NCBI GenBank assembly: GCA_030278955.1
Contig: JAOANR010000010.1
Location: 14,243,086-14,307,085, forward strand
Length of the DNA stretch: 64,000 nt
Origin: Hygrophila difformis
Taxonomy: Eukaryota; Streptophyta; Magnoliopsida; Lamiales; Acanthaceae
Reading direction: 5' to 3'
The first letter of the stretch is position 1, and every line of letters starts with the position of its first letter. Both the position numbers and the translations under genes were made by a program. Positions 51,021 through 58,852 of the stretch are shown piece after piece. The notes under the pieces are model-generated. The model had not been told where the DNA came from and did no database searches. It was given only the letters and a program-made list of their open reading frames with translations.

Positions 51021-51288
51021 AAGTATGTAGGGGTAAATGTTAAAAAGGGCCATAACAAGGAGGCTATTCCACTTTTAGGCCATAACAAGTTGGAATTGTA
51101 AAAACAGGTCATAACAAACACAGTTTGGCAAAATTTAGGCCATAGGACCTATTTGAAATTAATAAATGACCCAACAACTTTTCCTTCTTTCATTTCAACC
51201 CCAAGAAAGTTTGACTTTATTTACTTTAATCCTTTCTCAATATACTTAATTTTTCATTATATAAATGACACCCAACGCGCATGAAAAT

Positions 51289-51301
51289 TGGTATCAGAGC
51301 C
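51289..51301 (+). promoter_or_regulatory. tRNA-Met primer-binding site
   Basis: TGGTATCAGAGCC is complementary to the 3' end of plant initiator tRNA-Met, the minus-strand primer of caulimovirids and many retroelements. By convention it marks position 1 of caulimovirid genomes. Here it lies within a few bases of the inner edge of the left inverted repeat. Confidence 0.92.
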
Positions 51302-51377
51302 TAGGTTTTATTGAAGAACATATTAATTATATTATTTATAATATTTTATTTCTTAATGGAGAAGATTTAATTATTTA

Positions 51378-51536
51378 ATGGATTCAAATAATTTGAAACC
51401 CACGAGTTATTTCCAAATTTTGGAAATAAAAAATAGAAAATTCCAAAGGAATTTCTTGAACTTGTCCATGGGACAAGATATTATCAAAATCAGTCTCTTT
51501 CCTAAAAATGAGAGGAACGGACTGGAAAGAAATTGA
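51378..51536 (+). CDS. Small ORF after the primer site (52 aa)
   Basis: ATG at 51378 to TGA at 51534-51536, start MDSNNLKPTSYFQILEIK. It overlaps the next ORF by 29 bases in another frame. Caulimovirids often have a short ORF in this position, but I see no diagnostic motif. It may be a leader ORF rather than a functional protein. Confidence 0.4.
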   Translation: MDSNNLKPTSYFQILEIKNRKFQRNFLNLSMGQDIIKISLFPKNERNGLERN

Positions 51537-51891
51537 TCCGGATAGCTCTAAGTTATCAAAAGACTTAAGAGAAATCCAAAAGACGATTCAAGATTTTGGT
51601 AATCGGGTATTAATTATACCTGGGAAAATAGATAACTTGAATCAGACAACAGATGAGATCTTGAAAGTATTTCAAGACCTAAAGAAAGAAATTTTGAATC
51701 TGAAATTTGACATTTCGGATATCAAAAAAAGGCAGAAGGATATTCCTGGATCTTCCAAGAATAATCAAGCCAATATTAGAGATGCATTCGGACCAGTACA
51801 AGCTTTACATCAAAAGGGTAAAGCAACTATGGTTCCAAAGCAGAAATCACAAGAAGAGCTTATGATCGATCTCCTGAAAACAGTCGAATGA
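51508..51891 (+). CDS. Coiled-coil ORF, pararetroviral (possible virion-associated protein)
   Basis: 127 residues from MRGTDWKEIDPD. Residues about 18-75 have heptad-like spacing of I/L/V (LREIQKTIQDFGNRV, IDNLNQTTDEILKVFQDLKK), predicting a coiled coil, followed by a basic Lys-rich tail. It ends in an ATGA overlap with the coat ORF (51888-51891). Virion-associated proteins of caulimovirids are small, coiled-coil and basic at the C-terminus, so that role is possible, but sequence evidence is weak. The frame is intact. Confidence 0.5.
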   Translation: MRGTDWKEIDPDSSKLSKDLREIQKTIQDFGNRVLIIPGKIDNLNQTTDEILKVFQDLKKEILNLKFDISDIKKRQKDIPGSSKNNQANIRDAFGPVQALHQKGKATMVPKQKSQEELMIDLLKTVE

Positions 51892-56582: not shown

Positions 56583-57861
56583 AGCTGATTCCATCATTAC
56601 GAGATTCAGGCACCTCAGAGAAAACCTAGAGGAGCTATCGAAGCATTTTGGACAGCTCGAGATCAATGCACGAGCAGTTGGCCAAATACAACAGAGCGAT
56701 GTGGACATGGTCCGCAACAATATACGAACCTCCCATATAGCAATGACAGCACTATGGGAAACAGTATTAGAGCCAATCAGGAAAGCGTCAGCTTCCCTGG
56801 TAAACAAAGAGAAAAGTGCCCAAAAAGCTAAAGTGGTCACATATGAAGAAGCAGATTCAAGCACTGCTTCAAAGGAACCATTGTCGGATACCGACAAAAA
56901 TGTTGAGCAAGAAGAAAGTCACATTTCCGAAAGCTCAAGTCAACCCACTGCCTCTGGGGTGAAAGAGGAAGAAATTAACCTTAGGCCAATGACAGGCACC
57001 TCTAAGGTTAATTCAGACGAGAAGGTCCTATCTACTGCCTGGCTGGACTACCGAGGAAAATGGGAACAACTGGTTTCCAAAAAGGGAATTAACCCTAGCA
57101 AAACAGTAATCGAGACATCCGGGAGATACAACAGGGTATGGATGCTCGAAGAATCGAAACCAGAAGAGGTACGAAAGTGGTATGAATTTGGAGCATTAGC
57201 ATCTGTTCATACTACATCACCGGGGTTTCCGGAAATCGAAAAACTTCCGGGATGGATAAGTAGTGCGGTGCACGAATCATGGCAGAACAACCCGCACCTG
57301 CAAAGAGGAGATATTCTGGAGCTTAAGTTCATTTCAGCGGCACCAGAGATAGTCGGAAAAGGTTCTTATCCGGTCTTTCAATTTATTAAATTACAGAGAC
57401 CTGATATGATTGCTTTCAACAGAGTTAAGTCTATGGATGAGAAGGCACCATTGGTATCTTCAATCAGCAAAGATGAAATCTCCACCCGACGAGCATGGGG
57501 ATTCTGGGTCCGGCTCACCGAGATGGAAAAGGTTAAATATCCGTTTAAAATATTCTCAAACAATTTAAATGGATCGTTCCTGGTTAATTCTTTAACAGGG
57601 AAAAGCACAGAGTTCGCGGAAACCTCATTCGAAAAGAAGAGGTTACTCATCTGGGAAAACAAGTTGCCAGCAACCGAGTCCACCAGAAAAAAGGCATGCA
57701 ACATGATGCATGTTGGCCAATGGGATAACCACATATGCCCATATTGTGCAGAACAGGAGAAACCCCTATTCGGTACAAAGATCCGAGTAACCCAGAAAAA
57801 ATCCGGACCCGAACAGGACAAAGGGAAGAAACGTCCAAAAAACTTTCACAAGCCAAAGTAA
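56569..57861 (+). CDS. Pararetroviral ORF in transactivator position (430 aa)
   Basis: An intact frame from MEAFEADSIITRF overlapping the polymerase stop by 14 bases. Residues 1-85 look helical; 90-150 are low-complexity acidic/Ser. The central part has WLDYRGKWEQLV and the PGFPEIEKLPGWI block. Near the C-terminus HVGQWDNHICPYC gives a His/Cys cluster, possibly zinc-binding, and the tail is basic. In caulimovirids with this gene order the last ORF is the translational transactivator/inclusion-body protein. I assign it by position and size; I see no decisive motif. Confidence 0.6.
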   Translation: MEAFEADSIITRFRHLRENLEELSKHFGQLEINARAVGQIQQSDVDMVRNNIRTSHIAMTALWETVLEPIRKASASLVNKEKSAQKAKVVTYEEADSSTASKEPLSDTDKNVEQEESHISESSSQPTASGVKEEEINLRPMTGTSKVNSDEKVLSTAWLDYRGKWEQLVSKKGINPSKTVIETSGRYNRVWMLEESKPEEVRKWYEFGALASVHTTSPGFPEIEKLPGWISSAVHESWQNNPHLQRGDILELKFISAAPEIVGKGSYPVFQFIKLQRPDMIAFNRVKSMDEKAPLVSSISKDEISTRRAWGFWVRLTEMEKVKYPFKIFSNNLNGSFLVNSLTGKSTEFAETSFEKKRLLIWENKLPATESTRKKACNMMHVGQWDNHICPYCAEQEKPLFGTKIRVTQKKSGPEQDKGKKRPKNFHKPK

Positions 57862-58053
57862 GATTAGCTGGATGTAAAAGAAAGAGAGGTGTCGGCAACA
57901 CTCATAATTAAAAGCCGACAAAGAAGGGCAGAGTAGCTGGCAGAAAGTGGCCGACAAGAGAAGGTGGAGAGTTGACAAAAGCCACCTAACGCAATAATTC
58001 AAAAAAGGACAATAATGTAGCCGGTGGAAATTAAGGCCAAGTGACGAACGCAG

Positions 58054-58120
58054 TGACGTCACAAGGATTTAGAGGAAGATTGGAATCCGGGGCTGAAGTC
58101 CGCGGGCGCCTATAAATAAA
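58054..58120 (+). promoter_or_regulatory. Pararetrovirus-type promoter (TGACGTCA plus TATA)
   Basis: TGACGTCA at 58054-58061 is an as-1/bZIP-type palindrome. TATAAATA starts at 58111. They lie after the last ORF, as the full-length-RNA promoter of caulimovirids does. Transcription would start near 58140-58150 and run towards the end of the unit. A GGGGTATTCCCC hairpin lies just downstream at about 58224-58235. Confidence 0.7.
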
Positions 58121-58852
58121 GGAGTTTGAAGCAGATGGAAGGCATCAAAAATCCTCCCAACTCTTCAAAATATTTGTAATATTTCTCTTTCTGCATATTT
58201 CCTTTCGAGTCTGTAAAAGTATGGGGTATTCCCCCAAGAGTCTTGTATCCTCCATGAGGAACTAAGTGTTTGTCTTCTCCGTTAGGGGAAATTATGTTTG
58301 AATAATATCTTTAATATTTCTTCAGTAAAATCCAGGCTTCCAAATATCCCAAAAATCCCGATAATATAGTTAAAGCCATTTATTCATATCTTGATACGTC
58401 CTAAGGTAGGAAACGAAATAGGACTGTGCTGTTTGTTGCTGAAGGAGCCAAGAATCGGTGAACCATCGGCCGTGGTTGCGTGGTTGGAGGAAGTCCGTAA
58501 AATCCCGGAGCTTAGGAAACCCGGCAACAAGGCGGTCAAAGCCAAGGTATGAAATTTAGTGCTTAATTTAATTATCGGAAGCATGATGGGCTTTAATTGG
58601 ACTATATTTGATGAAAAATATAAGATAGGGGTCAAAGTGTAATAGGGTAAAAGTTGAAGTCAACTGATGGGGTCAAAAGTATAATTAAGCAAAAGCTGTT
58701 AGGGTCAAGTATAATTTTAAAAGGTCTTGATGGCCTAAAATTGAACTAAAGTGGTTTGTTATGGCCTAAAATTCATAATCCAAGTTGTCATGGCCTAAAA
58801 CCTGAAAGGCCTCCTTGTGATGGCCTATTTTGATAATTACCTCAAGTATGTA

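What the first reader, a model, noticed from the sequence alone, without database searches (positions are those of the whole stretch)
51030..58843. Pararetrovirus genome enclosed by Mutator-like inverted repeats with a 9-bp TSD
Seen: a perfect AAGTATGTA duplication, long inverted arms with the same ordered GGCCATAACAA modules, and between them a near-complete caulimovirid gene set. Known: caulimovirids encode no integrase and integrate by illegitimate recombination, without TSD or inverted repeats. Inference: the viral genome is now cargo of a Mutator-like unit, either through insertion into an element or through capture. If the whole unit has moved as one, it would be a DNA transposon carrying a virus.
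Basis: partly seen in the sequence, partly recalled or inferred. Interest (0 to 1): 0.88.

Follow-up and report, generated by a model that had tools for sequence, protein, structure and literature searches.

The report
Plant virus moving as DNA transposon
A plant pararetrovirus that has no integration enzyme of its own sits in this genome inside transposon-type ends, and many young copies of the whole unit, most with their own 9-base target duplication, show that virus and ends insert together, which offers a testable answer to how such viruses enter plant chromosomes.

Summary
Confirmed. E1 (51030-58843) has long inverted arms, a perfect 9-bp duplication and a caulimovirid interior. A perfect 9-bp TSD flanks 21 of 28 (one is a duplicate of E1's locus), against 0 of 650 swapped flank pairs. 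Virus and arms therefore insert as one unit, recently (0.43-0.48% private change per copy). In RT and movement-protein pieces private changes are near-neutral (dN/dS 0.66-1.0) but inherited ones mostly synonymous (0.07-0.09; 0.22 without one dominant branch), so the lineage between insertions depended on working viral genes. The arms continue the viral leader hairpin. A second family (E2, ~1.2 kb) has non-homologous arms round the same leader segment and no genes; 10 of 10 sampled copies share its structure. Best reading: a caulimovirid carrying Mutator-like ends in its leader, replicating by reverse transcription, inserted by a transposase supplied in trans. The transposase and the circle with joined ends are inferred; no joined ends were found in the assembly. 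A composite DNA transposon remains possible.

The parts
51021..51029 (.). left target-site duplication AAGTATGTA
51030..51288 (+). left Mutator-like terminal inverted repeat (outer ~241 bp with ~30-bp modules; homology to the right arm runs to about the PBS, the innermost ~50 bp only weakly, 38 of 1000 shuffles as good)
   Evidence: 40 places at 98-100% identity including E1 itself
51289..51301 (+). primer-binding site TGGTATCAGAGCC (recalled Met-tRNA motif)
   Evidence: 259 bases from the element edge in 9 of 10 loci, E1 included
51287..51378 (+). descending strand of the foot of the viral leader hairpin (pairs with 58262-58344)
   Evidence: duplex -69.8 vs mean -22.7 and minimum -34.6 of 200 shuffles
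51508..51891 (+). ORF1, 127 aa; weak coiled-coil-type Pfam hits below their cut-offs
51822..53325 (+). capsid-type region in several frames (open stretches 51822-52670, 52610-52837, 52783-53325); zinc knuckle in the last
53279..54526 (+). movement protein ORF, 415 aa, PF01107
54523..56247 (+). aspartic protease + reverse transcriptase ORF, 574 aa
56238..56582 (+). RNase H piece, in another frame from the RT ORF
56569..57861 (+). last ORF, 430 aa, at the place of a transactivator (place recalled); the named relatives seen among the 120 listed are from Lamiales
58111..58117 (+). TATA box of the presumed pregenomic promoter, reading towards the right end
58221..58265 (+). 14-codon leader sORF ending at the foot of the stem
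58262..58344 (+). ascending strand of the foot of the leader hairpin
58345..58601 (+). leader segment shared with E2 (72-77% identity)
58602..58843 (-). right Mutator-like terminal inverted repeat
58844..58852 (.). right target-site duplication AAGTATGTA
29380..30607 (+). E2: 1,228-bp palindromic element; unrelated outer arms, the same leader segment inverted on both sides, no viral gene; member of a second multi-copy family
29370..29379 (.). E2 left duplication ATTTTGAAAT (9-10 bp)
30608..30617 (.). E2 right duplication ATTTTGAAAT

Best explanation
E1 is one insertion of a caulimovirid lineage whose genome carries Mutator-like terminal inverted repeats in the upper part of its leader hairpin. 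Shown: the arms and the viral genome insert together, mostly with 9-bp target duplications, at many sites; RT and movement protein were under purifying selection between insertions; the insertions then decay near-neutrally. Inferred: the lineage replicates as an episomal reverse-transcribing virus. Its circular DNA has the two arms joined at the top of the leader hairpin. A host Mutator-type transposase acting in trans recognises the arms, opens the circle there and inserts the whole genome with a 9-bp stagger. Gene-free palindromes made of the arms plus leader (E2, and a 2.7-kb case from the E1 lineage) spread as MITE-like derivatives.
For: Left arm: 41 matches scored from 1,225 first-look candidates, 40 of them full-length at 98-100% identity (E1 included) and one a 79% piece beside another copy; 35 of the 39 other copies begin at query base 8-12, the element edge being 11. 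Right arm: 40 matches at 97-100%, 1,135 candidates. TSDs: 9/9 in 21 of 28, 8/9 in 3, 7/9 in 1, against 0 of 650 swapped pairs at 9/9 and 0.8% at 8/9. 20 of 26 measured lengths lie at 7,786-7,843 bp. Shared vs private changes: RT 3N:12S vs 49N:17S; MP 8N:35S vs 50N:23S; holds without CpG/CHG changes and, more weakly, without the c25/c35 branch (11N:15S, p=1.3e-4). Leader stem foot -69.8 vs shuffle minimum -34.6, with an sORF stop at its foot, as in the pararetroviral shunt layout described in PMC5902531 (passages). Arm mismatches that keep G.U pairs in virus-sense RNA outnumber those that keep them in the antisense 33:12, p=0.0025, pooled over four arm and stem pairs.
Against: No joined right-left end within 30 bp (exact match to 12+12 end bases) was found in the assembly, so the proposed circle junction is not seen. 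No transposase was recognised in E1 and no autonomous partner was identified. One of 28 pairs has no TSD, one is only in TA-repeat register and one needs a 1-bp edge shift; 11 of 39 left arms have no right arm in the stretch fetched. The selection signal is dominated by one branch (copies 25 and 35: 0N:32S); without any pattern involving them it is dN/dS 0.33, p=0.02. None of the four parts of the wobble test is significant alone (E1 outer arms 13:6, p=0.17). The PBS lies in the descending stem strand, not downstream of the shunt landing site as described for CaMV. E2 spreads without any viral gene, so DNA-only transposition of such arms very probably occurs.
Confidence: 0.6

Rival explanations
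1. A composite DNA transposon: a Mutator-like element captured a whole caulimovirid once and the unit multiplied as DNA by transposase in trans; the viral genes are cargo, or serve only for occasional horizontal spread.
For: TIRs, 9-bp TSDs and exact ends; gene-free E2 copies suggest that arms of this kind move as DNA; no right-left joined ends found; Teratorn is a precedent (PMC10175614, passages).
Against: Inherited changes in RT and MP are mostly synonymous while private ones are not; passive cargo should be neutral throughout. The arms extend the viral leader hairpin. E1 and E2 have unrelated outer arms round the same leader segment.
Confidence: 0.3
2. Simple nested insertion: a virus integrated by chance into one old Mutator-like element.
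For: In the window alone the arms differ from each other at about 19% of ungapped positions while several ORFs are open.
Against: The same arms with the same interior recur at many sites with different TSDs.
Confidence: 0.02
3. The 'TIRs' are only the viral leader hairpin, and opened circles were joined in by end-joining at its tip; the duplications come from fill-in at staggered breaks.
For: The arms are continuous with the leader stem; the review of endogenous caulimovirids names break repair as one of two main hypotheses and notes flanking TA repeats (PMC10377300, section 3.1); the 19 perfect TSDs are 89% AT.
Against: A constant 9-bp duplication and exact ends in most copies, and moving gene-free palindromes with 9-10-bp duplications, call for an enzyme with a fixed stagger.
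Confidence: 0.03
4. Insertion by a retrotransposon integrase, as proposed for banana streak virus.
For: The review lists recombination with LTR retrotransposons as a route (PMC10377300, section 3.1).
Against: A 9-bp TSD with long inverted repeats; plant LTR-element integrases make about 5-bp duplications (recalled). The self-comparison of the window (60 longest rows shown) lists no direct repeat at both E1 edges; LTRs were not searched for otherwise.
Confidence: 0.02

Closest known systems
Teratorn (piggyBac-herpesvirus fusion of medaka; PMC10175614, passages seen)
   Same: a viral genome between DNA-transposon ends, with TSDs, in host chromosomes
   Different: Teratorn carries its own transposase and is a ~180-kb herpesvirus fusion; here the virus is a 7.8-kb reverse-transcribing one, the ends are Mutator-like and no transposase was recognised inside
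Endogenous caulimovirids / pararetroviruses (PMC10377300, passages and section 3.1 seen)
   Same: movement protein, A3 protease, RT, RNase H, PBS, shunt-type leader, no integrase
   Different: the parts of the review seen speak of break repair or retrotransposon help and mention no TIRs or TSDs; here TIRs and 9-bp TSDs are regular
Mutator-like elements and Pack-MULEs (PMC3310237, abstract and outline; otherwise recalled)
   Same: long TIRs, 9-bp TSDs, non-autonomous copies, foreign cargo
   Different: the cargo is a viral genome whose tested genes stayed under selection between insertions, and the arms join on to the viral leader hairpin
Foldback / MITE derivatives of Mutator-like elements (recalled)
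   Same: E2 and the 2.7-kb C9 palindrome: long inverted arms, 9-10-bp TSDs; no viral gene in E2
   Different: their inner part is a pararetroviral leader segment

Membership tests
Caulimoviridae | viral movement protein of the 30K type | tested here: met
   PF01107, E=5e-30
Caulimoviridae | A3-type protease, reverse transcriptase and RNase H | tested here: met
   PF02160, PF00078, PF17917; best solved relative 8r0s 'Enzymatic polyprotein'
[quoted passage not shown]
   sORF and stem as in PMC5902531 passages; the PBS place differs from that of CaMV; the landing site was not tested
Caulimoviridae | no integrase | tested here: met
   no integrase domain among Pfam hits of the ORFs and pieces scanned
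Caulimoviridae | encapsidated circular DNA genome | not testable with these tools
   only integrated copies were seen
Mutator superfamily (non-autonomous element) | about 9-bp target-site duplication | tested here: met
   21 of 28 pairs perfect
Mutator superfamily (non-autonomous element) | long terminal inverted repeats | tested here: met
   about 241-259 bp
Mutator superfamily (non-autonomous element) | mobilised by a MULE transposase; TIRs related to an autonomous MULE | not tested
   no TIR library at hand and no search for an autonomous partner was made; the MULE-domain gene at 45724-47748 is a host FRS6 gene
Autonomous transposon-virus fusion of the Teratorn type | own transposase gene inside | tested here: not met
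   no transposase domain among Pfam hits of E1 ORFs and pieces
Pack-MULE | captured host gene fragments | tested here: not met
   the domains recognised above cut-off in the interior are of viral or retroelement type

The most novel reading that the evidence does not exclude
A lineage of pararetroviruses has built DNA-transposon ends into its leader hairpin, so that its own circular DNA is a substrate for host Mutator transposase. It is a reverse-transcribing virus with regular, enzyme-made chromosomal integration but no integrase, and it sheds gene-free transposons made of its leader.
Probability: 0.5. Interest if true: 0.96.

Novelty: new variant of a known kind. Interest (0 to 1): 0.9.

Why it matters
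How caulimovirids get into chromosomes is called speculative in the review seen here (PMC10377300, section 3.1), and the mechanism of their integration and propagation unknown in the Teratorn review (PMC10175614, passages). This family gives a concrete, enzyme-like answer for one lineage: exact ends, a fixed 9-bp stagger and about 1,100-1,200 unscored candidate ends. It also offers a plant counterpart of virus-transposon fusion, a source for a MITE-like family (E2), and a system in which selection before and after insertion can be separated. No report of TIR-flanked caulimovirids was seen in the listings; two searches listed only 20 of 74 and 20 of 976 papers, and most subscription papers are not in that library.

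Tried and rejected
Nested insertion was rejected by the genome copies. The FAR1/MULE-domain protein at 45724-47748 was considered as the transposase and rejected: its relatives are FAR1-RELATED SEQUENCE 6 proteins of many eudicots, and no inverted repeat longer than 34 nt was found in 43000-50900. Two scans of viral contigs found no relative. Rfam gave no match at its gathering scores. A search for joined right-left ends found none. A count of all left ends by pattern was asked for and never answered, so copy numbers rest on first-look candidate counts only. Searches with E2's inner segment and an RT piece did not complete. Homology of E1 and E2 outer arms was tested and not found (z 0.7-1.9). 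The right arms of 11 of 39 copies were not pursued further.

My notebook says 19 full-length pairs; the recount of the list gives 20 of 26, used here.
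Full report
What is there. E1 spans 51030-58843 (7,814 bp). The same nine bases, AAGTATGTA, lie directly outside both ends. The arms are imperfect inverted repeats of about 241-259 bp with modules every 29-31 bp. Between them lie, in order: a primer-binding site (51289; motif recalled), ORF1, a capsid-type region in several frames with a zinc knuckle, a movement protein, protease-RT, an RNase H piece in another frame, a 430-aa last ORF, a TATA box (58111) and a leader with a 14-codon sORF. 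The promoter lies near the right end and reads outwards, so a single integrated copy cannot make a full pregenomic RNA by itself; a circle or tandem would be needed (inference).

Host and relatives. G000 has 915 Mb in 246 contigs and the window is C2:14243086-14307085. The FRS6 gene in the window is 81% identical to that of Sesamum indicum and of Paulownia; an unnamed contig has a 94% relative. This suggests a member of the Lamiales other than Sesamum (inference). The RT ORF has 704 protein relatives at E<=0.001; the named ones I saw among the 120 listed are from Sesamum, the top hit at 84% identity over 94% of the query. The last ORF has 131 relatives; the named ones I saw among the 120 listed are from Sesamum, Salvia, Perilla, Phlomoides and Phtheirospermum.

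The arms and the virus move together. The left arm gave 41 matches from 1,225 first-look candidates: 40 full-length places at 98-100% identity, E1 included, and one 79% piece beside another copy. Of the 39 full-length places outside the window, 35 begin at query base 8-12, where base 11 is the predicted edge. For these 39 I fetched the left edge and a stretch where the right end should lie. The right arm was there in 26; two more were paired through the right-arm search, making 28, and 11 were not found. Of the 26 measured together, 20 are 7,786-7,843 bp long and six are shorter (3,002-7,377 bp). The flanking 9 bp agree perfectly in 19 of 26, at 8 of 9 in three and 7 of 9 in one; of the remaining three, one lies in a TA repeat, one agrees if the edge is shifted by one base and one has no duplication. 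Copies 10 and 14 agree perfectly. Swapping flanks between copies gave 0 of 650 at 9/9 and 0.8% at 8/9. The copy at C2:14202554 has E1's own TSD and the same 20 bases of left flank and is a duplicate of the locus, not an independent insertion; without it 20 of 27 are perfect. The 19 perfect TSDs are 89% AT (window 66%).

Viral interior in the copies. RT pieces were fetched for 20 copies: 19 cover the 690-bp piece (one of them with a 5-base gap) and one (copy 33) only 313 bp, which was dropped. MP pieces were fetched for 19 copies and all 19 kept. With E1 this gives 20 rows for each gene. Median pairwise identity is 98.8% (RT; range 96.2-99.7) and 98.7% (MP; 93.5-99.9). Changes seen in one copy only, mostly after insertion, are near-neutral: RT 49N:17S, dN/dS 0.83-1.0, four stops; MP 50N:23S, 0.66-0.78, not different from neutral (p=0.10-0.35), three stops. 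Changes shared by two or more copies, most of which should predate insertion, are strongly synonymous: RT 3N:12S (p=3.5e-6) and MP 8N:35S (p=1.3e-15). The result holds when CpG/CHG transitions are removed.

A limit on that result. Most shared changes lie on one branch: copies 25 and 35 against the rest, 0N:6S in RT and 0N:26S in MP. Without that branch the two genes give 11N:15S, dN/dS 0.22, p=1.3e-4; without any pattern that includes copy 25 or 35, dN/dS is 0.33, p=0.02. Copies 25 and 35 differ from E1 by about 5% in MP and 2-3% in RT, yet their left arms are 98-99% identical to E1's (right arms 96 and 98%); this uneven divergence would fit recombination between viral strains (inference).

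Arms and leader hairpin. The foot of the leader hairpin pairs 58262-58344 with 51287-51378 at -69.8 kcal/mol, against a mean of -22.7 and minimum of -34.6 over 200 shuffles. The sORF stop is at its foot, which matches the shunt layout in PMC5902531 (passages); the PBS is in the descending strand, whereas that paper places the PBS of CaMV downstream of the landing site. If the two ends were joined in a circle, the arms would be the upper part of the same hairpin (inference). Mismatches between arms that still allow G.U pairing in virus-sense RNA number 33 against 12 in the other sense (p=0.0025), pooled over E1 and E2 arms and stems; none of the four parts is significant alone (E1 outer arms 13:6, E1 stem 7:1, E2 outer 4:1, E2 inner 9:4). 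Ends joined right-to-left within 30 bp, with exact 12+12 end bases, occur 0 times in the assembly, so the circle is a proposal.

E2 and palindromes. E2 (29380-30607) carries E1's leader segment inverted on both sides (72-77% identity) inside outer arms that are not detectably related to E1's (z 0.7-1.9, against 38.6 for the leader segment). Its outer arms are 96.6% identical to each other and its inner ones 89.2%. E2's arm found 40 scored places of 1,436 candidates at 97-100%, E2 and a duplicate of it included. Of ten sampled, all ten are elements of the same ~1.2-kb structure; the edge motif could be located exactly in seven, all seven with a shared 9-10-bp flank. From the E1 lineage itself, C9:11085589-11088285 is a 2.7-kb palindrome of two right ends with the duplication TACAATTAA on both sides. 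So arms of this kind, with leader but without a complete virus, also move.

How it most likely works. Shown: unit insertion with a 9-bp stagger, recent amplification, selection on two viral genes before insertion. Inferred: an episomal viral circle with joined arms, recognition by a host Mutator-type transposase, and insertion by it. The main rival is a composite DNA transposon that carries the virus; it explains the ends and E2 but not the selection. Regular 9-bp duplications with long TIRs are the structural mark of the Mutator superfamily (recalled; PMC3310237 abstract for the long TIRs). That bacterial relatives of Mutator transposases use circles with abutted ends is recalled, not taken from a paper read here.

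What is known. The review of endogenous caulimovirids calls the integration mechanism speculative and names break repair and retrotransposon machinery, with one mention of a hijacked transposon-derived integrase (PMC10377300, section 3.1). Teratorn is the nearest precedent for a virus inside DNA-transposon ends (PMC10175614, passages). The listings showed no report of TIR-flanked caulimovirids; two of them were capped.

Age. Private changes amount to 66 over 20 x 690 bp and 73 over 20 x 840 bp, i.e. about 0.43-0.48% per copy, so the insertions sampled are young. The sample is biased to the most E1-like copies, because only the best 40 candidates are scored per search.

Noticed in passing
G000 C2: E1 14294115 / copy 14202554; E2 arm 14272450 / copy 14363474: Both loci have a second copy about 91 kb away with the same flanking bases as far as seen, as if a ~91-kb segment had been duplicated in tandem.
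   Followed up: no
window 45724-47748 (-): Intact 674-aa FAR1 / MULE-domain / SWIM protein, a host FRS6 gene; 81% identical to Sesamum and Paulownia.
   Followed up: yes
window 32888-37772 (+): LINE-type pieces in separate frames: DUF4283 with zinc knuckle, endonuclease, reverse transcriptase and zf-RVT.
   Followed up: partly
PR-RT ORF 54523-56247 against host gene FRS6: The viral protein is 84% identical to a Sesamum copy while the host gene is 81% identical, which hints at spread of the virus between host species after they split.
   Followed up: no
G000 C9:11085589-11088285 (L131): 2.7-kb palindrome of two right-end halves of the element (each about 92-94% identical to E1), with its own 9-bp TSD.
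   Followed up: partly
copies 25 (C8:12851311) and 35 (C10:18798804): MP about 5% and RT 2-3% away from E1 while left arms are 98-99% identical: possible recombinants between viral strains.
   Followed up: no
G000 C1:14504380-14504900 (L134): A second arm piece and an MP piece directly beside copy 39: a nested or rearranged copy.
   Followed up: no
G000 C6:17522103-17524103 (L151): A movement-protein fragment about 40% identical to E1's near an E2-type element: perhaps an older caulimovirid lineage.
   Followed up: no
window 62600-63051: Tandem arrays rich in ATACCG/CGGTAT units with 26-, 52- and 104-bp periods.
   Followed up: no
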